Shown here in pieces: positions 1 to 14,323 of a stretch of DNA of 64,000 bases (positions are counted from its first letter, which is position 1; every line of letters starts with the position of its first letter). The translations under genes and the position numbers were made by a program. Origin of the DNA: Gammaproteobacteria bacterium (GTDB lineage Bacteria > Gemmatimonadota > Gemmatimonadetes > Longimicrobiales > Gaopeijiaceae); NCBI GenBank assembly GCA_028819075.1, contig JAPPMM010000047.1, positions 113,025 through 177,024 of the forward strand. The letters are read 5' to 3'. The notes under the pieces are model-generated. The model worked only from the letters and a program-made list of their open reading frames with translations, was not told where the DNA came from and ran no database searches.

Positions 1-573
1 CTGGAAGGACACGCCCAGGCTGATACGCGCGCTCGGATCGGCTCGGTCTTCGGATCCGACAGCGGCTTCGGTCGAGATGGTCATTCGGCGGACAGTCCAA
101 CCCACCCCCAGTCCGAATCCTGTCACGTTGTACGTGTCTCCACGCATGGACTCGGGTTCCGTCTTGATCACGCCGGTCCCGTATTCCACGAGCCCGTAGA
201 CGATCGGCCCCTCGCCCTGGCCCAGGCCCAGGCGGACCCGGCCGAGATACTGATGATCACGCCGGGTCTTGTGGTCGTACTGCACGTTCCAGCGAACCAT
301 CTGGGCCAGGAATCCCATGGACGCCCAAGCGGCGGTATCCGGGAAACGCACCACGACATCCAGATTGGCCCCCGGAGAGAACAAGCCGACGAGCTCTCCC
401 CTCATCCCAACGAGCACGTCGGGCAGCGGACGGTCCTCCTTTGAGCCGTCGCGCTCCCCGTTCACCTCCTGAGCCTCCAGGATGGACGCGGTCAACGCTC
501 CCGCGGCAAGCGCGACGATGCCAAACCTTGCTCCACGCCACTCCACGCTAGTCTTCCCCCGCGCATTCTGCAT
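1..573 (-). CDS. Outer-membrane beta-barrel protein, 5' part (runs off window)
   Basis: An open frame on the minus strand starts at an ATG (573) and stays open for 191 codons to the first base of the window, so the stop lies outside. The N-terminus is a basic stretch followed by a hydrophobic alanine-rich segment ending ...TASILEAQE, a plausible signal peptide. The rest alternates polar and hydrophobic residues with many Gly, Tyr and Trp (for example YLGRVRLGLGQGEG and FGLGVGWTVRRMTIS), as in small outer-membrane barrels. The visible end, ARISLGVSFQ, looks like a last barrel strand, so little may be missing. No specific family recognised. Codon use is GC-rich like the core genome, unlike the defence island to its right. 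Confidence 0.6.
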   Translation of the reverse strand, partial: MQNARGKTSVEWRGARFGIVALAAGALTASILEAQEVNGERDGSKEDRPLPDVLVGMRGELVGLFSPGANLDVVVRFPDTAAWASMGFLAQMVRWNVQYDHKTRRDHQYLGRVRLGLGQGEGPIVYGLVEYGTGVIKTEPESMRGDTYNVTGFGLGVGWTVRRMTISTEAAVGSEDRADPSARISLGVSFQ

Positions 574-1257
574 GCGTTCTGGAGATGCTACATCTGGAAG
601 CGTCGGACTCCGACACCTCCATCTTTCCTTATCCCCGGCGTACCTCGCAACGGTTCGAGGAGGGGATCGCCTAGCGCTCAGGATGATGGAGATGATCGAG
701 GGCTACGACCCGGAGGAGTGCGAGGGGATTAATGGGGGAGTAGGTCCTGTCCGAGGTGAGAACACACGAAGACCCGCGCCGGAGCGCGGGCCTCGGAAAG
801 GGGGCAGTGCGATGGCTTGGCCATGCGCAGGTGCGTCCCGCACCGGATGCTCGCAGCCCACTCTTGCGTGTGTCAAGGGGTCGAACCGGATGCGATGGTA
901 CTGCTGCTTGCAGACGTGCGCAATGAACGGGGAAAGCAAGCGTTGTCGCGGAGCGGTTTCTTCGATGATCCGATGTAGGAAGGGCCTGGGGAACCATCTG
1001 CGGGCGTGAGGACGCGGAATGGTCTCCGACCCTAGGCCTGTCGAATTGACGGAACGGATGACGTTAGGCATCATGGGGCTCGTATGCCCTTCGACGAGCA
1101 CGCTAGGATTTGAGAACGAAGCGAGGCACAACTCGGGCAGAATGGGAAGGGCACAACCAGCTGAAATGCGGACAACGAAGGGGATGTGACCCCACACCCG
1201 TCGCTCACGACGCCTTGCGGGTGCCTCGCAATGACCATGGAGGAGGGACAGGCCTAG
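574..1257. other. 684-bp intergenic region upstream of the defence island
   Basis: This gap separates the leftward outer-membrane gene from the rightward DISARM-like genes, so it should carry the promoters of both. The open frames here have no recognisable protein features and overlap on both strands, so none is called. The only clear structure is a GC-rich hairpin at 770-793. A purine-rich ribosome-binding site (aggaggg, 1240-1246) lies 11 bases before the ATG at 1258. No tRNA-like fold or CRISPR pattern was seen. Confidence 0.6.
770..793. terminator. GC-rich hairpin, possible terminator or attenuator
   Basis: The bases cccgcgc (773-779) and gcgcggg (784-790) form a perfect 7-bp stem with a CGGA tetraloop; two further flanking pairs are possible. 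There is no T-tract after it on the plus strand, so intrinsic termination is uncertain. It could equally be a structured 5' leader element of the defence operon. Confidence 0.3.
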
Positions 1258-3819
1258 ATGGAAGGCGCCACCTGGGAGAACCCCAGCAACGAGTCTCTGG
1301 TCACACAGAACGTCTGGAGGCACTACCCTTGGCTCAAGGACTTGTTCGTGTCCTCAGGCAACGCTGCAACTGGAGCACCTTTCCCACCCTTTCTCGGGGC
1401 ACTCCTTCACACGATGGACCGCGGCTCTCTGGCACCGAGCTGCATCGTACTACCAGCCAAGGACGGTTGCGCGTTCTCCTTGGCGCTCGCTAGCGCCTTA
1501 CATGCCATCTGGGAGCAATTTGAACACGTCGAACTGGATCAGTTGACCACTCCCTTGAAAGCTGGAATCAAGGTGAAGGTCGCCCCAGAAAACCGCGTTT
1601 GGTTAGTAGAACGCGACGGAGTTGTCCTTTTCGGCGAGCGTCGGATCGCGCTTAGGAATCCAGTTGACGACCAGATCAGCTACATGAAGGAGAGCGAAGC
1701 GTTTCGCCTCACGACCACAGAGAGCAAAGGTCCAAAGCCAAAGAAAGGCAGCAGGATCAGTCCTTGGCAGGCTTCGCCGGTCGATCAGCTGCTGGGGATC
1801 AACACTGGAGGCAATCTTGACGTCTTCGGAACCCAAACGGTATTGGTGGCTCCACAACAGAAGACCCAACTCTTGGCGGACACGACTGTCGTCTCCGGAT
1901 CCGGTCGCCTACGTCCACACGCATCTGAGCTCATTACATGGGGAAGAGTAAAGAAGAATGGTCGCACTGTTGCGAAGGACCAGTCCGTCGAGCCAATTGT
2001 TGCCGTCACGCATTCTGTTGCTCTCATGGCAGAAGCGTGTCGGCGTTTCAAGGATGACGAACGAAGAGTTGTTGTAAATGGGGCTGCCGGACTCGCTGGG
2101 GACTCTAGCGCTTTCTACGAGACGTCCGAGAGACATAAACTAATGATCCTGAGCGATCACTCGGAGCTTGATGAGGTACGACTTCTCCAAGATCGAGGTT
2201 GCGAGGTATGGGCACCGGATCCAGAAACGGTGTTGCCTCTCCTTGGAAATGTCGATCAACTGGCATCCCCGGTGACGCGAACGCATATTATGATCCGCAA
2301 CTGTCGCGATCTCGCAGTTGTACCAATCATGGTGTCTGACGAGAAGATCGAGAAACTCCATGACCTGATCGATGAAGCGTGGTCCCGCCGGCCAAGTGAG
2401 GATATGGCTAGGTTGAACAGCTTGACATGGCGGGTATTGCTCCTCGCTACGGAGTGGGTCGGAGCACCGAATAAGGCCACACTTGATGCGTTTGAAACGG
2501 TGGTTCGAACACTCCAATCAACCATTCGGGCAGAGCGAGCTTGGATGAGAGCGAGCGTTCGAAATGCCCTTGAGCGCGCTCTCGATATCGCCACAGACCT
2601 ACTTGCGATCCGCGAATCGGGTGTGGATAAGGGAAACGCACTTCTCGCCCATCTCGAAGAAGAGAGCGACACGGCGATTGTCGCCCGGAACACCGTGGCC
2701 AAGAATCAGGTAGGATGGTTCTTGGATACGGCGGACATTGAGTGTCCCGTATATCTGCCGTACAAGATGTCACACGAGACGTACGATTCCATCGTATTGT
2801 GCTCGTGGCCGGGAAGGAGTCGTATGTCGAGAATCGTGGCGCAGTATCCGAGTCGACGCATTGCTGTCCTATGCTATCCCTTCGAAGAACGCTGGCTATC
2901 TCTATATGCTAACCGGTGGATCAAGGAATGGAAGAGATTCCGAAGACCAGTGCGAGAGATCACTCGGATGACCGGACTGAACGGATGGTCAACGGCTAAG
3001 GAATTCGACCGGCCGAAAAGTGTACCAAGGGTACAGGACGGCGACAGACATCGAACTGATCCCGTATCGTCTCTCTTGGCGAGTCGCAAGAAGACGAGTC
3101 ATGAAAAAGTCGAACATTATCAGGTCCGGGAAGCACGGTACGTCGGATTCGAAGGGGATGGCTACTCGTATCTCACCGATGCACACAAGGTGCCGCTTCT
3201 GACAGACTTGATCCTGGGTTACAGGCCCGACGTGCACCGCATTCCACTGGTATCGGCCAAGGAACTCGTGGTAGGCGACTTCGTGTTGTTCAGGGAGCGT
3301 GGCGACCGTGACATGATTGCCGCGGTAGCGGAGCAAGAGATCGGAACTGGGGCCTACGCCTCTCTCCGCAACCTGGCGAAGCGTTGGCGACCAGCGGTAG
3401 CGTCACTCGGTCACAACTTCGAGGACATTTACACGGTCTTGCGTCGCGCTGGGCTCCGTCGTCAGCCGGCTACGGTACGCACTTGGTTGTACGATGATGA
3501 CCGGATCGGTCCTCAGGACAAGGCAGACTTGGAGACGATCGCAAGGGCGAGCGGGAGGAAGCAACTCCTCGGCGGGTTGGAGGACACTTGGAACGCCATC
3601 GTCAGACTGCGAACGGAACACCGCCAAGCGGGATCAACACTGAGTAGACTCCTACTGTCAGAGTTGCCTTCCTACATCGAGACCACCCTGTCAACACCCT
3701 GCCGGATCAAGCTGACTCTGGGCAACGCATGGGTCGTTGAGGTAGAGGAGGTCGCCGCTGCGATGGAGAGTCGCCCTCAATGGGAGGTGAACAGTTTCCT
3801 GTTGGACGACGAACACTAG
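1258..3819 (+). CDS. drmE: DrmE-like protein of a class 2 DISARM-type system
   Basis: 853 residues, preceded by a strong aggaggg ribosome-binding site. No catalytic signature is obvious. The protein looks like a large multi-domain soluble protein with alternating alpha/beta segments: a beta-rich N-terminal third, a helicase-like middle (VVVNGAAGLAGD and LMILSDHSELDEVRLL around residues 280-310), a long helical segment (about 380-480), then SYDSIVLCSWPG-type strands followed by VLCYPFEERWLSLYANRW. The C-terminal third is helical. Size, position directly before the drmA/drmB pair and association with a C5 methyltransferase all fit DrmE, the class 2 DISARM protein of unknown function. The identification rests mainly on synteny and length plus a general resemblance. 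It ends 8 bases before the preferred start of the next gene. Alternative: an unrelated island-specific protein. Confidence 0.55.
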   Translation: MEGATWENPSNESLVTQNVWRHYPWLKDLFVSSGNAATGAPFPPFLGALLHTMDRGSLAPSCIVLPAKDGCAFSLALASALHAIWEQFEHVELDQLTTPLKAGIKVKVAPENRVWLVERDGVVLFGERRIALRNPVDDQISYMKESEAFRLTTTESKGPKPKKGSRISPWQASPVDQLLGINTGGNLDVFGTQTVLVAPQQKTQLLADTTVVSGSGRLRPHASELITWGRVKKNGRTVAKDQSVEPIVAVTHSVALMAEACRRFKDDERRVVVNGAAGLAGDSSAFYETSERHKLMILSDHSELDEVRLLQDRGCEVWAPDPETVLPLLGNVDQLASPVTRTHIMIRNCRDLAVVPIMVSDEKIEKLHDLIDEAWSRRPSEDMARLNSLTWRVLLLATEWVGAPNKATLDAFETVVRTLQSTIRAERAWMRASVRNALERALDIATDLLAIRESGVDKGNALLAHLEEESDTAIVARNTVAKNQVGWFLDTADIECPVYLPYKMSHETYDSIVLCSWPGRSRMSRIVAQYPSRRIAVLCYPFEERWLSLYANRWIKEWKRFRRPVREITRMTGLNGWSTAKEFDRPKSVPRVQDGDRHRTDPVSSLLASRKKTSHEKVEHYQVREARYVGFEGDGYSYLTDAHKVPLLTDLILGYRPDVHRIPLVSAKELVVGDFVLFRERGDRDMIAAVAEQEIGTGAYASLRNLAKRWRPAVASLGHNFEDIYTVLRRAGLRRQPATVRTWLYDDDRIGPQDKADLETIARASGRKQLLGGLEDTWNAIVRLRTEHRQAGSTLSRLLLSELPSYIETTLSTPCRIKLTLGNAWVVEVEEVAAAMESRPQWEVNSFLLDDEH

Positions 3820-3827
3820 AGGACGCT

Positions 3828-5585
3828 ATGAGCCGCATGATCCCCCCAAGGGTGCATCCGGACACCCCTTCCTCGGAACACCAAGTCTACCGTCGCCTGA
3901 GGAACGACCCCGGCACAGAGGAGTGGACCGTGCTCCACTCACTGGGCCTAGCTCGTCGCGGGGAGAAGCCCTTTGGCGAAATCGATTTCGTGGCTCTTAT
4001 CCCCGGATCGGGCGTTGTTTGCTTGGAAGTAAAGGGTGGAGGAGTGCGTTGCCAAGATGGAATGTGGTATACTCGTGACCGGTACGGACGTGAACACCGC
4101 CTCTCGCGTTCCCCAATCGCTCAAGTGCGCGATGCCGTCTTCGGACTTCGCTCCGCGGTACGACAACAGTTCGGCAACTGGTCGGAGCTAGCTTCCCTCC
4201 TCTACAGTTCAGCGGTCGTTCTTCCTGATGTCAGCAGGTTTCCTGACAGTCCCGATCATGATTCCGAGGAAGTGATCGATGTCGACGCCCTCAGAGAACC
4301 GATCTCGCGATCGATCATGACAGCGGTCGCGAATGATGCGAGACGCCTCAAGAAGACCAAGCAAATGCGTTTGGCCACGCCGAAGAATCTCAGACTGCTA
4401 CGCAACTACTTGCGTCCCAATTTCGACGTCGCGCTTGCTCGCTCCACTGTGATTCGGCGATCCGAGGAACGCATCGTGCAGCTAACGGAAGAGCAGTACG
4501 ATGCACTCGACCTCCTTGAGCGCAATCCTCGTTGCGTCGTAGAGGGAGCTGCCGGCACAGGTAAGACTCTTCTTGCTCTCGAGTTGGCTCGCCGGGTCGT
4601 TTCAGATGTGAACAAGATTCTGCTGGTTTGCTACAACCGTCTCTTGGGTGAGTGGCTCTCGCAAAGGGTTGGCGAGATATGTCCGGAACGCACCGTGGCG
4701 GCAGGAAGCTACCATCGTCACATGAAAGACCTGATCCTGAGCAGCGCTGTGGCAGAGGAGTTTCGTGAGGCGGAGCGATCTGCAGGACAGAATAGCGAGG
4801 ACCTTTTTGATCTTGTATATCCACTCTATGGGCAACTCGCGCTGTCAGAATCACTTGGGTTATGGGATCTCTGTATCATGGATGAAGCGCAAGACCTAGT
4901 GACTGAACCCGTACTTGACGTCATCGATGAGGGCCTGACCGGTGGCCTGCGAGAGGGACGATGGGTAATGCTCGGTGACTTCAACCGGCAGGCAATTTAT
5001 TCGAGATCACACGACGACTGGGGCGAAACCCTATCGAAATATGTAGCGCCAGGGCGCTACACGATCGCACCACTTACACGCAATTGCAGAAATACCTACA
5101 GGATTGGGGAAGAGACGGCCTTGCTGTCCGGATTTGACACCTTGCCCTATAGACTAGACGATTCGGACTGTCTTCCGGTAGACTACCGCTACTGGCGGAA
5201 TCGGAAACACCAAGTATCTCGTCTGAGGGAAGTCTTGGAGGCACTCGCGAGGGACGGGGTTCCCTTGGTGGACATCGTAGTCCTTTCTCCTCGCAAGTTC
5301 GAGAATTCAGTTGCTTCAGAGCTCGGTCAACGGATCACACCCGTCGACCATCTCGGGAAGAAGAGGGATCGGATCGCATTCTCTACAATCCACGCGTTCA
5401 AGGGTCTTGAGAGTCCCGTAACGGTGGTATGCGACGTAGAGGAGATTGAGGGAGATCGCAACCGATCTCTCCTGTACGTTGGGATGTCCCGGGCGCGAAG
5501 CTACCTCATCGTCCTACTACACGAACGCCTCAAGGGCACTGCGGCCGAGGCCATGGATCGAAGGCTGAGAGGACCATTCGGATGA
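3828..5585 (+). CDS. NERD-domain nuclease fused to a UvrD-like superfamily 1 helicase
   Basis: About 585 residues. The N-terminal ~150 residues are a NERD (nuclease-related) domain with GEIDFVALIPG followed by CLEVKGG, giving the D...E-x-K nuclease signature. The C-terminal part carries SF1 helicase motifs in order: Walker A (GAAGTGKT), Walker B (MDEAQDL), motif III (GDFNRQ), motif IV (LTRNCRNTY), motif V (IHAFKGLE) and motif VI (YVGMSRAR). An upstream ATG at 3780 is in frame, but 3828 is preferred because agagga lies just before it and it does not overlap the previous gene. The stop overlaps the drmA start (ATGA), so the two are translationally coupled. Known NERD-UvrD proteins process DNA ends or structured DNA; a role in DISARM-type restriction is inferred from position. 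Confidence 0.8.
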   Translation: MSRMIPPRVHPDTPSSEHQVYRRLRNDPGTEEWTVLHSLGLARRGEKPFGEIDFVALIPGSGVVCLEVKGGGVRCQDGMWYTRDRYGREHRLSRSPIAQVRDAVFGLRSAVRQQFGNWSELASLLYSSAVVLPDVSRFPDSPDHDSEEVIDVDALREPISRSIMTAVANDARRLKKTKQMRLATPKNLRLLRNYLRPNFDVALARSTVIRRSEERIVQLTEEQYDALDLLERNPRCVVEGAAGTGKTLLALELARRVVSDVNKILLVCYNRLLGEWLSQRVGEICPERTVAAGSYHRHMKDLILSSAVAEEFREAERSAGQNSEDLFDLVYPLYGQLALSESLGLWDLCIMDEAQDLVTEPVLDVIDEGLTGGLREGRWVMLGDFNRQAIYSRSHDDWGETLSKYVAPGRYTIAPLTRNCRNTYRIGEETALLSGFDTLPYRLDDSDCLPVDYRYWRNRKHQVSRLREVLEALARDGVPLVDIVVLSPRKFENSVASELGQRITPVDHLGKKRDRIAFSTIHAFKGLESPVTVVCDVEEIEGDRNRSLLYVGMSRARSYLIVLLHERLKGTAAEAMDRRLRGPFG

Positions 5586-8500
5586 CAGACACGGCTACGG
5601 GATCGGAGGAAGTACGGAGATTCATAATTGACTCTCTAAGGGCGGAGTTGGTCGGACCGGACCCGGGTTTGCCAGCGGTCCAGACGGGAGTCGGGACCAA
5701 CAGCGTCAAGGGTGAGGAGATCTTGAGATCGGAAGACCCGCCCAGAATGCGGTACGGCGCCGGGATACTCTTCCCGCGCCAGAGTAGCATCCAAGAACAG
5801 GACGATACAGAAGTAGCTGAAGGTGAATCGGCGAAACAAGAAGATCAAGAGTATTTGGGTGGCGATTCCCGCCGGCCATCGTCGGCTCGAGAACTTAGGT
5901 CAGAAGCAGACACGGAACAGGAAATCAACAGGGCAAACGAATACCTCCCGAGTGGACTGGGATTGACGGCGGTGGTACGTCTGCCTCCCAAGCTTGTGGT
6001 CGAGATCCAAGCTGGCCGGTATGAGCCTGAGATACTGCGCGGGCAGAAGGGACGGCGAGACAAAGACGGCAACGAGCGCCCGTACCAGGCATGGCGGCGT
6101 ATCCCCATCTGCCAGACCGTCTCCTTCACCCGTGATCAACTGCTTTCCAAGAAGATACACGAGGAGAATGTCGAGACAGGGTCCGCGGTCGTCAAGATGA
6201 AATTGCACGTCTTCGTCCGAGATCCTGGTATTCACCGTACGCCACCAGACTCGCACATGATCACCTTTACCTTGATCAACGCTACAACAGCTTACGGGAC
6301 GAGAAGGAACGACACGTGCCTATTCCAGTGCAGCTTTTCTGTGAGCGGTGAGGGTGACACTTGCTTCCTGGAGTATCCGGATCGTGTCGACTCGACCCCG
6401 ACAGATCCGTCCTCGTCACGCACGCCGCACGCTGCTGACTTGGAGCGGCACACGATGCGTCTGCTGTATCGCGGACGGAGAGTCTTCGCTGTCGGCCATG
6501 GATGCGCCCCTGAATGGAACGAGACGAACTCTGACGCCACCGATCGAATTCGAACGGAGGTGATGCCCGGTTTCGAAATCAAGCCCATCTACCCAACGGA
6601 ACTCTCGTCCGTTGACCTGAATATGGAGAGACTCGCGGAGGATGAGCGGTTGTCGATTCGAAGTGGCGAACGCTTGGCGAAACTCTATGCCGCTTGGATT
6701 GATGATCTCGAACACGCGGTCGATCAAGACGACAGCATTCCGCCGGACTTGCTGCCCGCCGCAAGAACAAACATCTCCCGAGCCAACGCGTGTCTTCGTC
6801 GAATGCTCACTGGAATACAATACCTCCGAAAGAGCCGGAACGTGCGCCGTGCCTTTGCAATCATGAACCGAGCAATGCTGATGCAGCAGCTCCACTATCG
6901 CCTGTCGACGAGCCCGCGCGGTTGGAAACAACGAGGCAGAAATTTGAAATTGACTCAGCCATATGAGCCCCCTGAATACAAGGACACGACCAACAAGTGG
7001 CGCCCCTTTCAGTTTGCCTTCGTCCTTTTGAACATAGCCTCATTCTTGGACCCATCTGACGATCACCGTGCCGTTGTCGATGTCATCTGGTTTCCCACCG
7101 GTGGTGGCAAGACGGAAGCTTACCTCGGGCTCAGTGCATTTGCTATCCTCTGGCGCAGATTGCAAAGACCGAAGACCTCGGGGACGGCAGTACTGATGCG
7201 GTATACGCTCCGTCTCTTGACGACACAGCAATATCAAAGGGCATCATCACTCATCTGCGCTCTCGAGTACTTGCGTCGGCAACAGCCTCACTACTTGGGT
7301 GCCACCCCAGTGACCATTGGCCTTTGGGTCGGAGGAAGCGTAACACCAAACAACGATGCCCAAGCTAAAGCTGCGCTTTCTAGAATGGAGAGGAAGGGGA
7401 ACAACGAAAACCGCTTTGTATTGGTAGCATGTCCCTGGTGCGGCGCAGGTATGGGAGCGTACCGCTTTAACAAGGTATTTCGCGTTGTCGGCTACCAGAA
7501 GGTTCCTTCGTTGCAACGGGTCGGACATGTCTGCGCCGATCCCGACTGCGATTTTCATAACGCGCCGGGTTTGCCTGTTCTCGTCACAGATGACGCCATC
7601 TACAAGACCCCGCCCACCCTTCTCATTGGCACCGTCGACAAATTCGCCCTTCTCCCTTGGTATCCAGACGCATCAGCGATCTTTGGACTCCGAAACGGGC
7701 ATCGGGAAAACCCTCCGCCCGACTTAATCGTCCAAGACGAACTTCATCTCATCTCGGGTCCGCTTGGCTCCATGGTCGGGCACTACGAAACCGTTATCGG
7801 CGAACTCTGTACTTCAAACGCCGGGCGTACCCCGAAGATCGTCGCGTCCACCGCAACCATCGCCCGTGCACCAGATCAAGTGAGATCCTTGTACGCACGG
7901 GAGTCGTTTCTCTTTCCACCACAGGGACTTGAATGGGGTAATTCCTTCTTCGCCGAAGAGCGCCGCGATCTCTATGGGCGGTACTACTTGGGCGTTTTCG
8001 CGACCGGATTATCTTCCCAGCAGACGGCCATGGTCCGAGTCATGTCTGCTTTGCTGCAAGCTCCGCGCTTGTCTCGACCAGCCAGCATCCCCGCTGTGGA
8101 TCCCTACTGGACACTCATCACCTACTTCAACTCGATCAGGGAACTGGGCTCCGCCGCGACGCTCGTAAGCGCGGACATCAGAGAGTACATGAGGGTTCTT
8201 CATCGTCGGATGGGCCTTACAAGACAGTGGAATGCGAAAGGGACGGATGATGATCGACGTCGTTGGATTACTTCACCAACTTTAGAGCTCACTAGCAGAG
8301 TGCCGAGTGGAGAAATATCTTCGACACTTCAACGACTCTTCGATTCCTATACCGGTAACCCGGGGTCTGCCGTCGACATCTGCCTTGCAACCAATATGAT
8401 TCAGGTCGGTTTGGATGTTGGCCGCTTGGGCCTTATGATGGTCGCTGGCCAACCAAAAACGACCGCCGAGTATATTCAAGCCACTAGTCGTGTCGGGCGT

Positions 8501-9043
8501 CGGCGGGGGCAGCCAGGGTTGGTCGTTGTACTTCTGAATCCCTCCAAGCCACGCGATCGCTCTCACTACGAACATTTTCGCGCATACCACGAGCAACTGG
8601 ACAGTGCGGTAGAGCCGACCAGCGTTACGCCTTTTGCTGTGCCGGTACGCGATCGTGCGTTGCATGCTTTGATCGTTACCTTGATCCGCTATTGGGGAGA
8701 CAATAACCTCCGCCGACGCCCGGACGCGCCGCTGCAGGAAGATCTCGTTGATCGCGTTCGGTCGGTCATCCGAAAGCGGATAGAGGAAGTCGATCCAGAG
8801 GAGCTGGACGCTGCGCTAGATGATTTTTCCTATATTATTGGTCGGTGGCATGCCACCCAACCAGGACGATACGGGAGGTTTGGTCCACAGGATGAAGAGA
8901 CACCACTGATGTACCCTTTTGGGACGGAACCACTGCCAGGGTGGGATGCCGCGGCTTGTGAGCCTCCATGGCCCACCGCTTCTTCGATGAGAAGCGTTGA
9001 TGCGGATTGCGAGTTGGGCGTGATTGGTTACTACTACGATTAA
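5582..9043 (+). CDS. drmA: DISARM helicase DrmA
   Basis: 1153 residues, matching the large size of DrmA. After a ~480-residue N-terminal region there is a superfamily 2 helicase core: Walker A FPTGGGKTEAYLGL near residue 505, zinc-binding Cys pairs (CPWCGAG and CADPDCDFH, about 617-655), a DEAD-box-like QDELHLISGPLGS near 717, and a conserved helicase C-terminal domain with NMIQVGLDVGRLGLMM and YIQATSRVGRR around 936-980. In DISARM, DrmA and DrmB form the core complex that recognises incoming DNA. The ATG overlaps the stop of the NERD-helicase gene by four bases, and drmB follows 21 bases downstream. Confidence 0.85.
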   Translation: MTDTATGSEEVRRFIIDSLRAELVGPDPGLPAVQTGVGTNSVKGEEILRSEDPPRMRYGAGILFPRQSSIQEQDDTEVAEGESAKQEDQEYLGGDSRRPSSARELRSEADTEQEINRANEYLPSGLGLTAVVRLPPKLVVEIQAGRYEPEILRGQKGRRDKDGNERPYQAWRRIPICQTVSFTRDQLLSKKIHEENVETGSAVVKMKLHVFVRDPGIHRTPPDSHMITFTLINATTAYGTRRNDTCLFQCSFSVSGEGDTCFLEYPDRVDSTPTDPSSSRTPHAADLERHTMRLLYRGRRVFAVGHGCAPEWNETNSDATDRIRTEVMPGFEIKPIYPTELSSVDLNMERLAEDERLSIRSGERLAKLYAAWIDDLEHAVDQDDSIPPDLLPAARTNISRANACLRRMLTGIQYLRKSRNVRRAFAIMNRAMLMQQLHYRLSTSPRGWKQRGRNLKLTQPYEPPEYKDTTNKWRPFQFAFVLLNIASFLDPSDDHRAVVDVIWFPTGGGKTEAYLGLSAFAILWRRLQRPKTSGTAVLMRYTLRLLTTQQYQRASSLICALEYLRRQQPHYLGATPVTIGLWVGGSVTPNNDAQAKAALSRMERKGNNENRFVLVACPWCGAGMGAYRFNKVFRVVGYQKVPSLQRVGHVCADPDCDFHNAPGLPVLVTDDAIYKTPPTLLIGTVDKFALLPWYPDASAIFGLRNGHRENPPPDLIVQDELHLISGPLGSMVGHYETVIGELCTSNAGRTPKIVASTATIARAPDQVRSLYARESFLFPPQGLEWGNSFFAEERRDLYGRYYLGVFATGLSSQQTAMVRVMSALLQAPRLSRPASIPAVDPYWTLITYFNSIRELGSAATLVSADIREYMRVLHRRMGLTRQWNAKGTDDDRRRWITSPTLELTSRVPSGEISSTLQRLFDSYTGNPGSAVDICLATNMIQVGLDVGRLGLMMVAGQPKTTAEYIQATSRVGRRRGQPGLVVVLLNPSKPRDRSHYEHFRAYHEQLDSAVEPTSVTPFAVPVRDRALHALIVTLIRYWGDNNLRRRPDAPLQEDLVDRVRSVIRKRIEEVDPEELDAALDDFSYIIGRWHATQPGRYGRFGPQDEETPLMYPFGTEPLPGWDAAACEPPWPTASSMRSVDADCELGVIGYYYD

Positions 9044-9064
9044 TGCGCAAGGGAGTTTTGAAAA

Positions 9065-10939
9065 ATGAGCGGCTATCGACCTGTTCGACGAGCACAACTA
9101 ATCGGTACCTTCGGTGTTGGAGCGATGGTTGATCTGCCGAATGATGAATCACTGATGGTGGCGGGTCTTGATGTTTGGCCATTCGCGAACGAGACGGTTC
9201 CCCCACAATGGGCCGTCATGGAGGAGCGCTTGGCGACTCGACTCGGCGTGAAGGAACTTCGATTGCCACCGGACTATCGGACCGGGAAGGGAACCGCGTA
9301 CCGGGAAAAGCGCATTCCATCGGTGCGCTTTCCAGGATGGCACTATTGCCCAAGATGCGGTGACATGAAGCGCCTTCCTCTTTTTGCGATGGGACCTAGG
9401 CGATGTTCAGGAATCGGAGATTCCGCGTGTTCCAAGATCGTCGAAAAACGGCGGCCATTCTTGATTCCAGTGCGGATAGTATCGGCCTGCGTGCAGGGGC
9501 ACATTCAAGATTTTCCGTTCGATGAATGGGCGCATGGCGGTGATACGACGGGTCATCGTCTCCGGTATCAGGCTTTCGGGTCATCCGCGTCGCTGAGTGG
9601 CGTGCAGATTCGGTGCCTCGAGTGTGGCAAAAAGCGGAGCTTGGCGGGGTCCTTTGAGTACGCATCGGCGTCGGGGGGCGCCTTGAGTGAGATGGGTCAA
9701 CTCTGTCGGCGTGGTCGTCCTTGGCTGGGGGAAACAGGGAGGAAGGGAGCGTGTGGCCTACACCTGAGGACACTCCAACGGGGCGCCTCCAACGTGTACT
9801 TTCCGTACACCGTGAGTTCGATTTATCTACCGCTGTGGGGGAAGGGAGCGGGAAGGCAGGTGATGCGGGTATTGGAAGACTCCTTCTACTGGGAGCTCCT
9901 GACCGGAGGTCTCATTGATGGGAAGCGCATTGACCCGTTGCGAGTCGACACAATCGCCAAACGTACCGGCGTCGATCCGGTAGCGTTGCGCCAAGCCGCG
10001 GAACAGAAACTCCAAAACAATGCACCGGCGGTACCGACGGAGGAAGATTACCGTAGGGCGGAATACGACGCCTTCATCGCCGGGGAGGGCGGGCGAGATC
10101 GCGACCTACTCGTGGACGTTCTCGACGACGCCCTCCTTTCTAACTGGTGTAAGCGGTACATCCGCCGGGTGTGTCTGGTCCGAAAGCTAAGGGAGACACG
10201 AGCTCTCGCGGGCTTCACTCGTGTTCTTCCCGCAGAAGGCGGGACAGATCCCAGGCTACAACGTCCCAGCGCGTCGGCTAGGCGATGGCTTCCGGCCACC
10301 GTCGTGAGAGGAGAGGGGATCTTCCTAGAGATTCGGCGACGCTCTATCAAGGAATGGCTTGACCGAAAGCCGGAAGCGGAGGAGCGAGCTAAACGATTGG
10401 CGGATGCTTACAACGCAAAACGGTTGGAACGAGGGCAGGCTCCTAGAGTGATTTCGGCCAAGTATCTCTTTCTACACACTCTTGCTCATCTCTTGATCAA
10501 GCAGTTGAGCTTCGACTGTGGCTATGGAAGCGCATCGCTTAGGGAAAGACTCTATTGTGAAACCGCGGAGGGATCAAGACCGATGCAAGGCTTACTGATA
10601 TATACAGCATCGGGTGATTCCGAGGGAACTATGGGGGGACTTGTACGCCAAGGTAAACCAGACCGACTCGAACCGGTACTCCTCGAGACAGTTCGCACAG
10701 CTTCTTGGTGCTCTGCCGACCCGGTGTGCATCGAGAGTCCAGGGCAGGGTACAGACAGTTCGAACTTGGCGGCTTGCCACAGCTGCGCACTAGTTTCGGA
10801 GACCTCATGCGAAGAGGGAAATCGGTTACTGGACAGAGGCATGGTTGTTGGCACCATCAGCGACCCTTCCTTGGGACTGCTTTCCTCTCTTGTTGGCCTG
10901 GGGACACCGAACGACATACAGAGGCGAGATGGCTCCTGA
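9065..10939 (+). CDS. drmB: DISARM protein DrmB (DUF1998)
   Basis: 624 residues. It opens with the typical DrmB start YRPVRRAQLIGTFGVGAMVD. Two zinc-ribbon-like Cys clusters follow (CPRCGDMKR near residue 95 and CLECGKKRS near 184). The C-terminal DUF1998 region contains HTLAHLLIKQLSFDCGYG and GLLIYTASGDSEGTMGGL (about 470-535), and the end has a Cys-rich NLAACHSCALVSETSCEEG. DrmB is the universal partner of DrmA in DISARM. A gggag ribosome-binding site lies about 10 bases upstream of the start. The vsr gene follows after 14 bases. Confidence 0.88.
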   Translation: MSGYRPVRRAQLIGTFGVGAMVDLPNDESLMVAGLDVWPFANETVPPQWAVMEERLATRLGVKELRLPPDYRTGKGTAYREKRIPSVRFPGWHYCPRCGDMKRLPLFAMGPRRCSGIGDSACSKIVEKRRPFLIPVRIVSACVQGHIQDFPFDEWAHGGDTTGHRLRYQAFGSSASLSGVQIRCLECGKKRSLAGSFEYASASGGALSEMGQLCRRGRPWLGETGRKGACGLHLRTLQRGASNVYFPYTVSSIYLPLWGKGAGRQVMRVLEDSFYWELLTGGLIDGKRIDPLRVDTIAKRTGVDPVALRQAAEQKLQNNAPAVPTEEDYRRAEYDAFIAGEGGRDRDLLVDVLDDALLSNWCKRYIRRVCLVRKLRETRALAGFTRVLPAEGGTDPRLQRPSASARRWLPATVVRGEGIFLEIRRRSIKEWLDRKPEAEERAKRLADAYNAKRLERGQAPRVISAKYLFLHTLAHLLIKQLSFDCGYGSASLRERLYCETAEGSRPMQGLLIYTASGDSEGTMGGLVRQGKPDRLEPVLLETVRTASWCSADPVCIESPGQGTDSSNLAACHSCALVSETSCEEGNRLLDRGMVVGTISDPSLGLLSSLVGLGTPNDIQRRDGS

Positions 10940-10953
10940 CCACGGGACACAGG

Positions 10954-11373
10954 ATGGCTGATATATTCGACGCTGAAAAAAGAAGTGAAATCATGTCCAG
11001 CATTCGCGGCCGTGACACCAAACCCGAGCTAGTCGTTCGTCGGATCGCCCACAGGCTTGGGTTTCGGTTCAGGCTTCACCGGAAGGATCTCCCCGGTTGT
11101 CCCGACATCGTGTTTCCTAGGTATCAAGCTGTGATCATGGTACACGGATGTTTCTGGCACCGACACCAGAATTGCAAATTCGCCTACAGCCCCAAGTCCC
11201 GTATTCAATTCTGGGAGAAGAAGTTCGAAGACAACGTTTCCAGGGACCGCCGGAATGAGGGGGCCTTGAATGATCTCGGCTGGAGGACGCTGGTAATCTG
11301 GGAATGCGAAACCAAGGATCCAGCGGCCGTGGCGGCACGAATCGTAGCCTACTTGCGGGAATCGAACCGTTGA
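10954..11373 (+). CDS. vsr: Very short patch repair (Vsr) endonuclease
   Basis: 139 residues, normal for the family. It shows the Vsr core: RSEIMSSIRGRDTKPELVVR at the start, LPGCPDIVFPRY with the catalytic Asp, and VHGCFWHRHQNC with the conserved HGCFWH and zinc-ligand residues. A longer frame opens further upstream inside drmB, but only the ATG at 10954 places the conserved start correctly. Vsr nicks next to the T of T:G mismatches produced by deamination of 5-methylcytosine, so it fits the neighbouring C5 methyltransferase. It is the last gene of the plus-strand defence operon and faces the methyltransferase. A direct restriction role is possible but unproven. Confidence 0.88.
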   Translation: MADIFDAEKRSEIMSSIRGRDTKPELVVRRIAHRLGFRFRLHRKDLPGCPDIVFPRYQAVIMVHGCFWHRHQNCKFAYSPKSRIQFWEKKFEDNVSRDRRNEGALNDLGWRTLVIWECETKDPAAVAARIVAYLRESNR

Positions 11374-11388
11374 CGGCTAGGCGTCAAC
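11369..11388. terminator. Hairpin between convergent vsr and methyltransferase genes
   Basis: The bases gttgacg (11369-11375) and cgtcaac (11382-11388) form a perfect 7-bp stem with a 6-base loop that covers the vsr stop codon. Its place between convergent genes suggests a terminator, but neither strand has a clear T-tract. Confidence 0.35.
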
Positions 11389-11462
11389 TATCTCGGAACA
11401 TCCCTCAGGCGGCTGGTTGCCCGGTGGAAATATCAATCGACTTCGCTTCCGTCACTGTTGGA

Positions 11463-13067
11463 TCAACGGGGCCACCCGTTACTTGTTGCAAACCGCTTTG
11501 CTGACCTGCGGCATTCGTCAAATACCGCCGATACCCTTCCAGCAATCTGCTGTGCAAGATACGGTGGTACCGCATTCCCGACCTGCACATATTGCTGCGT
11601 CCGTCCGCCGCAGAAGAAGTAGTTGTCCGGAAAAGTCTGCAGACGAGCAGCCTCTCGAACCGTGAGGCTGCGGCATTGAGCGGGATCTGGGTGAATGAAG
11701 TAGTGGCCATCCTTCGAGATGTGACTCGTGACGGTCCGGGAAGGCAGTTCGCGGACCTGCACTCGGAACCGATCAGCGAACTTCCCGGTTGCCCAGTTGA
11801 CGTGATTGGGCGCAAGCTCCATCGGGAAATCCGCGGACTTCGGTGATCGCCCCTTCGCTCGTGCGAAAGCTGCGGCGAAAAGATAGCGTGCCAAGTCCTC
11901 GGCCATATGTCCCCTGGCTTGGTTGTTTGGAAGCCTGCATAGCTTAGTATCGACAATCCAATCGCGAAGACTGCTCGGGCACGACAAGGACTCCGTATCT
12001 CCAACCGCGTCACCGTACGGTGGCAGTGGCCCTCGTGTCGTTCTGAGTGCGCTCGCGAGCGCATCATCGAACAGCGACTCATGCTCCTTTGTCATGGCCG
12101 GCCAAGGAATGCTCCGAATCAATCTGCACGCCGATGCCACGGCAGCCTTCCATCCCTCACCACTATCACCACGGCTGAGACGGCTGCGAAGTACAGGCAT
12201 GCCGCCGATCACATCGTCCACCGGAACAGTTCTCGTACCTTTCTGGAGGCGTAGGAGATCAGTCGGAAAAAGGTCCGCGACATCTCTCCTGACACACACT
12301 ACGAAGACCCGATGTCGCGCCTGCGGCACCCCGTGTTCTTCGGCACGAACGAGGAAGTCCTTGGGATCTTGGTCCTGTTCCCACAGACAGCCACCATTCC
12401 GCGGAGTCAAAGCAAATAGCCGATAGCGGAGGGTGGCACCTGCATCCCGCAGACTTGCCATCACGTACCGGAAAATCGGCTGGCCCTGGTGCCGTGCAGA
12501 GAGCATCCCCTTCACATTCTCCATGATGGCAACGGCGGGTTGAAGCCTTTCGAGTACGTTCACATAATCACGATACAGGAACTGGCGTTCATCCTTGTTC
12601 GGATCATAGGCCGCATTCCCAGCATTGCGAGCTCTCCCGACGAGCGAATATGACTGACAAGGCGGTCCACCAAGAAGCACAGTCCTCCCGCCGTGCCGTC
12701 GTCGAATCCGCTGCACCCGCGCCATGACGACACTGGTTGCCTCGGAAGTTCCAAGTTTCAGCCGAAGGGTCTCGTTACCAGCATCGAGCCATTTCTCGGG
12801 ATAGAGTTTCTTCCAGTTTGGTTCATCCTTGGCTCCGCGGTTCAGGAAATCATAGTATTCGATAGGGAGTTCTGCCGATGGGAACTTCCGTAGGAACGCG
12901 CGCAGGACCAGCGTCCGGTGTGCCGATGGCTCCGTCTCGACCGAGAGTGCGATGCGGAAGCGGGGGTGTCCGCCGGACTCCCGATACCCAGCAAACCCTT
13001 CGGCAAGCCCACCGGGGCCGGAGAACAGGTCGATGACGGGAACCTCGGGCGTCACCTTTGGTTTCAC
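11463..13067 (-). CDS. drmMII: DNA cytosine-C5 methyltransferase, DISARM DrmMII-like
   Basis: 534 residues from a GTG start. The C5-methyltransferase motifs are all present: I (DLFSGPGGLAEGF, residues 13-25), IV (GGPPCQSYS with catalytic Cys137), VI (MENVKG, 182-187), VIII (QARHRVFVV, about 249-257), then a target-recognition region of about 180 residues, IX (LTVREAARLQTFP) and X (QVGNAVPPYLAQQI). In class 2 DISARM this enzyme marks host DNA as self. Here it is transcribed toward the rest of the system rather than with it. Presence of Vsr next door supports 5mC, not N4mC, as its product. The recognition sequence cannot be read from the protein. Confidence 0.88.
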   Translation of the reverse strand: MKPKVTPEVPVIDLFSGPGGLAEGFAGYRESGGHPRFRIALSVETEPSAHRTLVLRAFLRKFPSAELPIEYYDFLNRGAKDEPNWKKLYPEKWLDAGNETLRLKLGTSEATSVVMARVQRIRRRHGGRTVLLGGPPCQSYSLVGRARNAGNAAYDPNKDERQFLYRDYVNVLERLQPAVAIMENVKGMLSARHQGQPIFRYVMASLRDAGATLRYRLFALTPRNGGCLWEQDQDPKDFLVRAEEHGVPQARHRVFVVCVRRDVADLFPTDLLRLQKGTRTVPVDDVIGGMPVLRSRLSRGDSGEGWKAAVASACRLIRSIPWPAMTKEHESLFDDALASALRTTRGPLPPYGDAVGDTESLSCPSSLRDWIVDTKLCRLPNNQARGHMAEDLARYLFAAAFARAKGRSPKSADFPMELAPNHVNWATGKFADRFRVQVRELPSRTVTSHISKDGHYFIHPDPAQCRSLTVREAARLQTFPDNYFFCGGRTQQYVQVGNAVPPYLAQQIAGRVSAVFDECRRSAKRFATSNGWPR

Positions 13068-13195
13068 TCGACCTCGGCGCGTTTCACCGGTAGAGGTCTC
13101 CTACACAGATAGGACACGTCATCCACAGCATGGTCGAGTGAATACTGTTCTGGACGGGGCTCGCAGGCAACTCGGCGACTCATGACGGCCGGCTC

Positions 13196-14323
13196 TCACC
13201 ACCTCCCCTCCCCCAACCCGAACCCCTCCACCCCCCACTTCCCTGCCTCCCCCAAACAAAAGTCCGCCATCACCCGCCCGATCACGCTGCAGAACTTGTA
13301 GCCGTGGCCGGAGAAGCCGGCGGCGATGAACGCGTCGTCCACGGTCGGGTGGCGGTCCAGGATGAAGTGCTCGTCGGGGCTGGTGGTGAACATGCACGCC
13401 ACCATACGGCGGGTGGGGCCGTTCGCCTCCGGGAAGTAGGCCGCGACTCCCTCGCGTACGCCGGCTTCGTCCTCCGGGGAAATTTCCCGGTCCAGGCGGT
13501 CCGGGTCGGGTACGGGCTGCACGCGAAGATGATACTTGCCGATCTTGAACCCCTCGCCGCGGTCGCTGGGGAAGCCGTAGTAGCGTCCCAGCGGGGCCTG
13601 CAGCACGAAGATCGGGAACCGCTCCGGCTCGAACGGCGCCGCGTTCAGGGGCTCCGTCCAGAGCATCGTCTGGCGCTCGGGCCGGCACAGGGGCGCGAGT
13701 TCCGGCACCAGTCGGCCCGCCCACGCGCCGGCGGTGAACACCAGCTTCCTGGCCTCGTAGGTGCCGCTTGCCGTCTCCACGCGGAAGCCCGACGCGCGCT
13801 TCTCCCACCCGCGCACCGGCGACTCGGTCACGATCTCGGCGCCCAGGTCGCGCGCCGCGGCGGCATGCGCCCGGATCGCCACCTCCGAGCGCACGTAGCC
13901 GGCGTCCGCCTGGTAGATGGCCCGCAGCGATTCGGGGACCCGGTAGCCGGGGAAGCGCCGGTTGACCTCCGCGCCGTCGAGCTCCTCGAAGGGGATGCCG
14001 TGCTCGAGGCACGAGCGCCGGGAGTTCTCGACCTTGGGGCTGTCGGGCGGTCCGATGTCGAGACCGCCGGTCACCACCAGGATCGACTCGCCCGTGGCCT
14101 CCTCCAGCTCCCGCCAGTATCGATACGCGGCCCGGAGCAGCGGCACGTACTGCGGTCCCTCGGAGTACGCCAGGCGGATGATGCGCGTGGACCCGTGCGA
14201 GGAGCCGAACGCGTGCGGGACCGTGAACTGCTCCAGGCCCAGCACCCTGCGGCCGCTCCGCGCGAGCTGGTAGACCGTGGCGCTGCCCATCCCGCCCACG
14301 CCGATCACGATGACGTCGTACAT
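13196..14323 (-). CDS. Monomeric sarcosine oxidase / N-methyltryptophan oxidase-like FAD enzyme
   Basis: 375 residues, the usual size for this family. N-terminal dinucleotide-binding motif VIVIGVGGMGS, then EQFTVPHAFGSSHGSTRIIR as in MSOX/SolA proteins. Near the C-terminus MVACMFTTSPDEHFILDRHP holds Cys310, the position of the covalent FAD attachment, and AAGFSGHGYKF is the substrate-site loop. Members oxidise N-methylated amino acids to the demethylated amino acid, formaldehyde and peroxide; the exact substrate is not predictable. It is divergent from the SDR gene with a 53-bp gap. Codon use is strongly GC-biased, marking the return to core sequence after the island. Confidence 0.8.
   Translation of the reverse strand: MYDVIVIGVGGMGSATVYQLARSGRRVLGLEQFTVPHAFGSSHGSTRIIRLAYSEGPQYVPLLRAAYRYWRELEEATGESILVVTGGLDIGPPDSPKVENSRRSCLEHGIPFEELDGAEVNRRFPGYRVPESLRAIYQADAGYVRSEVAIRAHAAAARDLGAEIVTESPVRGWEKRASGFRVETASGTYEARKLVFTAGAWAGRLVPELAPLCRPERQTMLWTEPLNAAPFEPERFPIFVLQAPLGRYYGFPSDRGEGFKIGKYHLRVQPVPDPDRLDREISPEDEAGVREGVAAYFPEANGPTRRMVACMFTTSPDEHFILDRHPTVDDAFIAAGFSGHGYKFCSVIGRVMADFCLGEAGKWGVEGFGLGEGRW

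What the first reader, a model, noticed from the sequence alone, without database searches (positions are those of the whole stretch)
1258..13067. DISARM-like defence island without DrmC, carrying a NERD-UvrD helicase and Vsr
The sequence shows DrmA and DrmB in order with a DrmE-sized protein before them and a C5 methyltransferase after them, the class 2 DISARM set. The phospholipase-D protein DrmC is absent, and a NERD-nuclease/SF1-helicase fusion and a Vsr endonuclease are built into the same plus-strand run with overlaps or gaps of 8-21 bases. This could be a DISARM variant in which effector nucleases have been exchanged.
Basis: partly seen in the sequence, partly recalled or inferred. Interest (0 to 1): 0.85.

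Follow-up and report, generated by a model that had tools for sequence, protein, structure and literature searches.

The report
DISARM variant with nuclease-helicase replacing DrmC
This bacterial gene island is a variant of the DISARM phage-defence gene set that lacks the usual DrmC nuclease gene and carries a predicted nuclease-helicase beside its core genes, as do 44 of 75 related loci examined, and that enzyme would likely be what destroys phage DNA in DISARM systems without DrmC.

Summary
At 1258-13067 lie a DrmE-family gene, a NERD-nuclease/SF1-helicase fusion, DrmA, DrmB and Vsr (one plus-strand run), then a DrmMII-type C5 methyltransferase on the minus strand. No DrmC is in the window; the genome's only above-cut-off DrmC lies in a separate class 1 DISARM on another contig.

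This is a widespread lineage. Of the 80 nearest DrmA loci, 75 have enough upstream DNA; 44, from 15 phyla, carry the NERD-helicase directly upstream of DrmA. Only 2 of those 44 genomes have an above-cut-off DrmC anywhere. In a 48-row DrmA tree the seven DrmC rows form one clade (99) and the window sits in a ten-row all-NERD clade (99).

The Vsr idea fares worse. Vsr follows the methyltransferase, not the NERD-helicase, and is more likely its mismatch-repair partner than an effector. At the same chromosomal site a sister genome holds Vsr (79% identical) and methyltransferase (74%) with an unrelated cassette, MzaBCDE.

Best reading: DrmAB senses unmodified DNA, the NERD-helicase would degrade it, and the methyltransferase marks self. 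All functional steps are inferred. Novelty: new variant of a known kind.

The parts
1258..3819 (+). DrmE-family protein, 853 aa; predicted SF2-helicase-like fold without Walker A or DEAD-box motif (pseudo-helicase)
3828..5585 (+). NERD nuclease fused to SF1 (UvrD-like) helicase; predicted effector in place of DrmC
5582..9043 (+). DrmA, SF2 helicase core subunit, 1153 aa
   Evidence: NF038325 933 bits; PADLOC DrmA 712 bits; relative of solved DrmA 7s9v; motif of the base-contacting valine kept
9065..10939 (+). DrmB, DUF1998/MZB core subunit, 624 aa
   Evidence: NF038324 455 bits; PDB 7s9v_B E 8.5e-80
10954..11373 (+). Vsr very-short-patch-repair endonuclease, 139 aa
   Evidence: TIGR00632 1.4e-40; Pfam Vsr 2.7e-29; D of CPDIVF and last H of HGCFWH in 41 of 41 rows, first H in 14 of 41
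11463..13067 (-). C5 cytosine DNA methyltransferase, DrmMII type, 534 aa
   Evidence: PADLOC DrmMII 1.2e-81; Pfam DNA_methylase 1.4e-38; 74% identical to the methyltransferase of a Mza locus at the same site in a sister genome
268..13200 (.). Variable island between conserved flanks (defence hotspot); right edge at 13199-13201, at the 3' end of a FAD oxidoreductase gene
   Evidence: blastn against three same-genus genomes: right flank resumes at window 13201 (G098), 13199 (G161) and 13201 (G077); left flank shared up to 267 in G098 and up to -962 in G161, not seen on the G077 contig

Best explanation
The island encodes a DISARM-type gene set without DrmC that likely defends against phage DNA, with a NERD nuclease fused to an SF1 helicase as the predicted DNA-destroying part in DrmC's stead. 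Shown by sequence: the gene set and order, catalytic motifs kept, absence of DrmC from the window, and recurrence of the NERD-helicase beside DrmA in many phyla. Inferred steps: (1) the C5 methyltransferase marks the host's DNA; (2) Vsr repairs the T:G mismatches left when 5-methylcytosine deaminates, as the vsr partner of dcm does (recalled, established for that family); (3) DrmAB loads on 5'-overhang or single-stranded unmodified DNA and is held back by methylation, as reported for Serratia DrmAB; (4) active DrmAB hands the strand to the NERD-SF1 enzyme, which unwinds and cuts it; (5) DrmE, a predicted catalytically dead helicase-like protein, would serve as sensor or scaffold.
For: Gene set and motifs. 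NERD-helicase directly upstream of DrmA in 44 of 75 nearest loci with at least 2.5 kb upstream, in 15 phyla; elsewhere in the locus in 6 more. Of 68 loci with both flanks, 40 have NERD upstream, 1 has DrmC adjacent, 0 have both. Whole-genome search: 2 of the 44 genomes have an above-cut-off DrmC, both far from the NERD locus or on another contig. In the window's own phylum, of 14 DrmB loci (13 of 298 genomes, window's own included): 7 with a DrmC-like gene adjacent, 3 with NERD upstream, 2 with a NERD-like gene downstream, 2 with neither, none with both. DrmA tree of 48 rows: the 7 DrmC rows form one clade (99), the window lies in a 10-row all-NERD clade (99). The base-contacting valine proposed to sense methylation (Serratia V1296) corresponds to V1139 in SMRSV; S[MLF]R.[VIT] is near the C-terminus of 93 of 97 DrmA. 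DrmC was reported dispensable and often missing, leaving degradation unexplained (PMC9142583, passages read). Same six-gene order in a Bradyrhizobium MAG, L010.
Against: No activity was measured. The window's own NERD part does not reach Pfam's NERD model; it rests on relatives and the conserved D/E/K. This very genome carries an above-cut-off DrmC in a class 1 DISARM, which could act in trans. Weaker PLD-type matches, below the DrmC cut-off, are in 28 more of the 44 genomes at E 0.001, as in most of the 14 control genomes (10 match, 1 above cut-off), so a stand-in PLD nuclease is not excluded. Of the 75 loci, 25 have no NERD-helicase at E 1e-10, so it is not required; of the upstream genes I scanned in five of these, two (L051, L045) are other UvrD-type helicases, while those of L022 and L040 show only DrmE_C and that of L061 a FokI domain. 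Four actinobacterial NERD rows fall outside the main NERD branch and the NERD label needs 7 changes in the larger tree, so it was gained or lost more than once. In that larger tree the 9 DrmC rows are not one group (4 changes). DrmE hits occur in 23 of 44 NERD loci.
Confidence: 0.62

Rival explanations
1. DrmC-less DISARM that works by DrmAB translocation alone, or with a housekeeping or trans-acting nuclease (for example the DrmC of the second DISARM on contig C23); the NERD-helicase is an accessory, such as a recycling or DNA-end processing factor. (The rivals are not all mutually exclusive with the best explanation.)
For: DrmC is reported dispensable and other PLD nucleases of the host are proposed as stand-ins (PMC9142583, passage). 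25 of 75 loci have no NERD-helicase, and only one of them (L064) an adjacent DrmC hit. The window's genome has DrmC elsewhere; weaker PLD matches are common.
Against: Only 2 of 44 genomes with the NERD arrangement have an above-cut-off DrmC. NERD and DrmA matches on one strand lie within 300 bases in 49 of 60 pairs, and the nuclease residues do not vary in 55 rows, which an idle accessory would not need.
Confidence: 0.22
2. Vsr is the effector nuclease, as the Vsr-type domain fused to ARMADA helicases may be; DrmAB recruits Vsr to cut phage DNA.
For: Vsr is 14 bases downstream of drmB here, and DrmB is its nearest annotated neighbour in 9 of 44 cases; predicted active Vsr-type domains end the YprA helicases of ARMADA (PMC12458937, section 8 read).
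Against: Vsr tracks the C5 methyltransferase (27 of 27) and not the NERD gene; its nearest annotated neighbour is the methyltransferase in 30 of 44 cases, 26 of 38 without the Mza-only loci; it pairs with Mza too; only 22 of 44 NERD loci have it in the DNA held.
Confidence: 0.12
3. Two independent units side by side: a DrmE-NERD-DrmAB defence operon and a stand-alone Vsr/C5 methyltransferase pair that belongs to the hotspot or to a past Mza or R-M system and has no functional link to DrmAB.
For: Methyltransferase on the other strand; its closest relatives here are Mza-associated (74, 69 and 52%) rather than DISARM-associated (49% and less). Its G+C (0.586) is only slightly above that of the other genes (0.54-0.58).
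Against: 38 of 44 NERD loci have a C5 methyltransferase in the DNA held; Bradyrhizobium L010 and Salinarimonas L075 carry it on the same strand after DrmB, and L008, L009, L011, L012 and L014 before DrmE; the ATPase of Serratia DrmAB is lowered by 5-methylcytosine (PMC9142583, passage).
Confidence: 0.2

Closest known systems
DISARM class 2 (DrmE, DrmA, DrmB, DrmC, DrmMII)
   Same: DrmA and DrmB cores, a DrmE-family gene first, a C5 methyltransferase of DrmMII type
   Different: No DrmC; NERD-SF1 helicase between DrmE and DrmA; Vsr; DrmE only of the wider subfamily; DrmA on a branch apart from the DrmC-associated DrmA sampled
DISARM class 1 (DrmD, DrmMI, DrmA, DrmB, DrmC), e.g. contig C23 of the same genome
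   Same: DrmA/DrmB core
   Different: No DrmD, DrmMI or DrmC profile hit in the first 20 kb of the window
[not shown]
   Same: Vsr and a closely related C5 methyltransferase; same chromosomal site in a sister genome
   Different: Effector cassette unrelated: no DrmA, DrmB or NERD-helicase hit in the sister's stretch; no MzaB match in the window's genome
ARMADA and TALON (Bell et al. 2025, PMC12458937; section 8 and passages read)
   Same: [quoted passage not shown] TALON: a NERD nuclease
   Different: Here Vsr and NERD are in separate genes beside split DrmA/DrmB; no BrxHII/PglX gene and no TPR-CSD or TBP among the island's proteins in the hits shown
Gabija GajB and other UvrD-type defence helicases
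   Same: SF1 helicase core (weak PADLOC GajB hits)
   Different: N-terminal NERD nuclease; partner is DrmAB, not GajA

Membership tests
DISARM class 2 (PADLOC definition: DrmA, DrmB, DrmC, DrmE, DrmMII; PMC9252829, passage read) | DrmA | tested here: met
   PADLOC DrmA 712 bits; NF038325 933 bits, 17 bits under the equivalog cut-off
DISARM class 2 | DrmB | tested here: met
   DrmB_fam 455 bits over cut-off 240
DISARM class 2 | DrmC (PLD nuclease) | tested here: not met
   NF038319 search of the whole genome, six frames: no match in the window, one above cut-off on another contig
DISARM class 2 | DrmE | tested here: inconclusive
   DrmE_fam subfamily met (180 bits, cut-off 80), DISARM_DrmE equivalog not met (21 of 250); PADLOC none
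DISARM class 2 | DrmMII C5 methyltransferase | tested here: met
   PADLOC DrmMII 1.2e-81, TIGR00675 122 bits over 101
DISARM (wide sense: DrmAB core) | DrmA and DrmB as separate adjacent genes, base-contacting valine | tested here: met
DISARM (wide sense) | anti-phage activity | not testable with these tools
   needs phage challenge
[quoted passage not shown]
   no such gene among the island's proteins in the PADLOC hits shown (for the methyltransferase 25 of 55 are shown); DrmA itself has a 1.4e-5 BrxH tail hit
TALON | TPR-CSD and TBP genes | tested here: not met
   no such Pfam hit at E 0.001 in the 8 proteins of the island and its edges; further flanks not scanned for it
Mza | MzaB-type ATPase | tested here: not met
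   no MzaB match at E 0.001 in the window's genome
Vsr endonuclease | family profile and conserved D and H (catalytic role recalled) | tested here: met
   TIGR00632 1.4e-40; D and last H in 41 of 41 rows

The most novel reading that the evidence does not exclude
The Vsr plus C5 methyltransferase pair is a portable self-marking chassis to which unrelated DNA-destroying cassettes, DrmE-NERD-DrmAB or MzaBCDE, are coupled interchangeably, so that two mechanistically different defence systems read the same methylation mark; and the NERD-SF1 helicase is the dedicated effector of an old, DrmC-free DISARM lineage.
Probability: 0.35. Interest if true: 0.78.

Novelty: new variant of a known kind. Interest (0 to 1): 0.62.

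Why it matters
DrmC has been reported dispensable and often missing, and how DISARM then destroys DNA was called a mystery (PMC9142583, passage). A nuclease-helicase encoded next to DrmA in loci of 15 phyla, with an above-cut-off DrmC in only 2 of those 44 genomes, makes that question directly testable. The methyltransferase/Vsr pair shared with Mza suggests that self-marking and destruction are separable modules that bacteria recombine.

Tried and rejected
DrmE alignment A1 as query for the genome scan failed for lack of conserved stretches, so DrmA (A2) was used; that samples loci by nearness of DrmA, which favours the window's own lineage. DrmE against plasmids: no match. NERD-helicase against PDB sequences: no match. 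Samples from other phyla could not be drawn with a locus as centre. A direct empty site in the same-species genome could not be shown: its contig ends near the left edge and it has no close match to the right flank.

Literature searches. Among the held open-licence papers two hold both DISARM and NERD as whole words: PMC12458937, of which I saw the abstract, outline, section 8 and search passages, and PMC10952713, passages. The parts seen describe no DISARM operon with a NERD-helicase. Seen as passages only: PMC9142583, PMC9252829, PMC11090510, PMC5379612; the other papers as listings. Ofir 2018 is not held. Figures and supplements were not seen, so prior description is possible; NCBI already has DrmE_fam and DrmB_fam models and PADLOC a NERD+UvrD model, C3a187. 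Considered and rejected: chance adjacency (gaps of 8 to 21 bases or overlap, and recurrence across phyla); frameshifted DrmC hidden in the window (six-frame profile search); TALON or ARMADA membership.

Rows dropped before counts: duplicates L001, L002, L004, L005, L006; four short DrmA (L087, L094, L095, L096) from the tree; C5 methyltransferase pieces under 280 aa; NERD pieces under 400 aa. One search used 48 of the 95 rows, chosen by me to span the groups; it leaves out two of the nine DrmC rows (L127, very divergent, and L128, identical to L092), and its 'none' group includes L048, L073 and L078, which have a NERD-type helicase elsewhere in the locus. The Vsr test uses the 62 of 80 loci with at least 5 kb upstream of DrmA and 3 kb downstream of DrmB; L042, with a Vsr fragment and no methyltransferase hit, lacks the flank and is not in it; its NERD-up label is at E 1e-4, where L054 and L072 also count. 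In the own-phylum sample L125 and L126 have under 2 kb upstream of DrmA, so a NERD gene there could be missed.
Full report
What is there. The window holds six defence-type genes at 1258-13067: a DrmE-family gene, a NERD/SF1-helicase gene, drmA, drmB and vsr on the plus strand with gaps of 8, -4, 21 and 14 bases, and a C5 methyltransferase of DrmMII type on the minus strand, 89 bases beyond vsr. The NCBI DrmC model finds one above-cut-off match in the genome, on another contig, inside a class 1 DISARM (DrmD, DrmMI, DrmA, DrmB, DrmC). That second system is also present in a same-species genome, G224, which shows no match to the DrmE family.

The arrangement is conserved. Of 75 loci with at least 2.5 kb upstream of DrmA, 44 carry the NERD-helicase directly upstream (profile E at most 1e-10), 6 elsewhere in the locus and 25 not at all. 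Of the 6, four (L056, L063, L073, L078) have it just after DrmB, where DrmC would sit. The 44 come from 15 phyla by record name. Of 68 loci with both flanks, 40 have NERD upstream, one (L064, a Bacillaceae locus with DrmA, DrmB, DrmC and a C5 methyltransferase) has DrmC after DrmB, and none has both. A whole-genome search of the 44 genomes with the curated DrmC model finds an above-cut-off DrmC in 2 (those of L074 and L030, not at the NERD loci) and only weaker PLD-type matches in 28 more; of 14 control genomes 10 match, 1 above the cut-off. In the window's own phylum 13 of 298 genomes, the window's own included, have DrmB, in 14 loci: 7 with a DrmC-like gene adjacent, 3 with NERD upstream, 2 with a NERD-like gene downstream (upstream cut short), 2 with neither. 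Among the 44, a methyltransferase is in the DNA held in 38, Vsr in 22, a DrmE hit in 23, and all of DrmE, NERD, methyltransferase and Vsr in 9. The order of the window's six genes recurs in a Bradyrhizobium MAG (L010), there all on one strand.

It is an old lineage. On a FastTree DrmA tree of 95 rows the label 'NERD upstream' (49 rows) needs 7 changes against 31.9 in shuffles, none of 500 as low; the 9 DrmC rows need 4 changes. With a mixture model on 48 of these rows, the 7 DrmC rows kept form one clade (99) and the window lies in a 10-row clade, all NERD (99), inside a 28-row branch with 24 NERD rows (98). Against a single origin: four actinobacterial NERD rows lie on the other side of the tree, and Bacillota, cyanobacterial and myxobacterial rows inside the NERD branch lack the gene.

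DrmAB. The proteins are relatives of solved Serratia DrmA and DrmB (7s9v). Alignment of a class 1 DrmA (L090) to 7s9v places residue 1296 of the chain, counted from the alignment's end, on the V of SMREV; the window has SMRSV (V1139), and 93 of 97 DrmA have S[MLF]R.[VIT] near the C-terminus. Bravo et al. (PMC9142583, passages read) report that V1296 contacts the base, that DrmAB prefers 5'-overhang DNA, that 5-methylcytosine lowers its ATPase, and that DrmC is dispensable and often missing.

Vsr. In 62 loci with wide flanks, all 27 with Vsr have a C5 methyltransferase, against 21 of 35 without Vsr (Fisher p 0.0001); Vsr is not associated with NERD upstream (19 of 27 against 18 of 35, p 0.19). 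Its nearest annotated neighbour is the methyltransferase in 30 of 44 cases and DrmB in 9, the window among the 9. This is what a dcm/vsr-like repair pair would give. It does not exclude an effector role, since here vsr follows drmB by 14 bases.

The site is a hotspot. The right edge of the island is at 13199-13201 in three same-genus genomes, at the 3' end of an oxidoreductase gene; the left flank is shared to 267 with G098. Between the flanks G098 has Vsr, MzaB-E and a C5 methyltransferase and G161 a type IIG R-M gene; beyond the right flank G077 has RmrA/RmrT genes near a contig end. G098's Vsr and methyltransferase are 79% and 74% identical to the window's in protein but 75% and 70% in DNA, while the nearest flanks are 95%, so they probably arrived separately. 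The window's methyltransferase is nearer to three Mza-associated ones (74, 69, 52%) than to any DISARM-associated one in the set (49% and less); with two of them it forms one set (100), inside a set of 8 NERD-DISARM rows (window included) and 3 Mza rows (100); the other 2 Mza rows sit elsewhere, next to a NERD-DISARM row (FastTree of 72 rows with long-branch warnings). In a zone I cut between motifs VIII and IX, where C5 enzymes read their target (recalled), it shares 119 of 179 residues with G098's and 55 of 179 with L008's. Of 7 phylum loci with an MzaB match that I looked at (16 of 298 genomes had one), 5 hold at least two Mza genes and all 5 hold both Vsr and a C5 methyltransferase, one methyltransferase cut by a contig end; the other 2 have only a weaker MzaB match and neither gene. 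An Agrobacterium plasmid shows the same Vsr-methyltransferase-Mza set, and a Shinella replicon has the pair next to NERD-helicase, DrmB and DrmA.

Verdict. A DISARM-family gene set of a lineage marked by a NERD-helicase and mostly without DrmC. By the PADLOC definition it is not class 2 DISARM, since DrmC was tested and not met. It probably works like DISARM, with the NERD-helicase as nuclease. The function of every part is inferred.

Noticed in passing
G000 contig C23:40000-59000 (L092): Second, class 1 DISARM (DrmD, DrmMI, DrmA in two ORFs, DrmB, DrmC) in the same genome, also in the same-species genome G224 (L128).
   Followed up: partly
L129, L130, L131 versus window 268-13200: Same chromosomal site carries Mza+Vsr+methyltransferase, a type IIG R-M gene, or (right side only seen) RmrA/RmrT in three same-genus genomes: a defence hotspot beside a FAD oxidoreductase gene.
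   Followed up: yes
L129:12598-12921 and 13894-14216: A 324-base partial copy (96%) of the oxidoreductase 3' end flanks about 1 kb beside the Mza island, which may be a trace of integration.
   Followed up: no
[not shown]
   Followed up: no
L051:7980-9881, L045:8104-9951: In two actinobacterial DrmA loci without NERD or adjacent DrmC, a different UvrD-type helicase (GajB-like by PADLOC for L051) sits directly upstream of DrmA.
   Followed up: partly
L061:5227-6855: A protein with a FokI cleavage domain lies between the C5 methyltransferase and Vsr next to DrmE-DrmA-DrmB.
   Followed up: no
L091:15901-19760 (Rhodococcus plasmid pROB02): NaeI-family restriction enzyme and HNH nuclease between Vsr and the C5 methyltransferase beside NERD-DrmA-DrmB.
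   Followed up: no
L091:6776-8299 and the same position in other NERD loci: A protein of about 500 aa without Pfam or NCBIfam match stands where DrmE stands in the window; in some relatives its C-terminal part matches DrmE.
   Followed up: partly
window 759-882 and 6363-6484 bases before the window start: 124-base direct repeat, 91% identical, near the left edge of the island.
   Followed up: no
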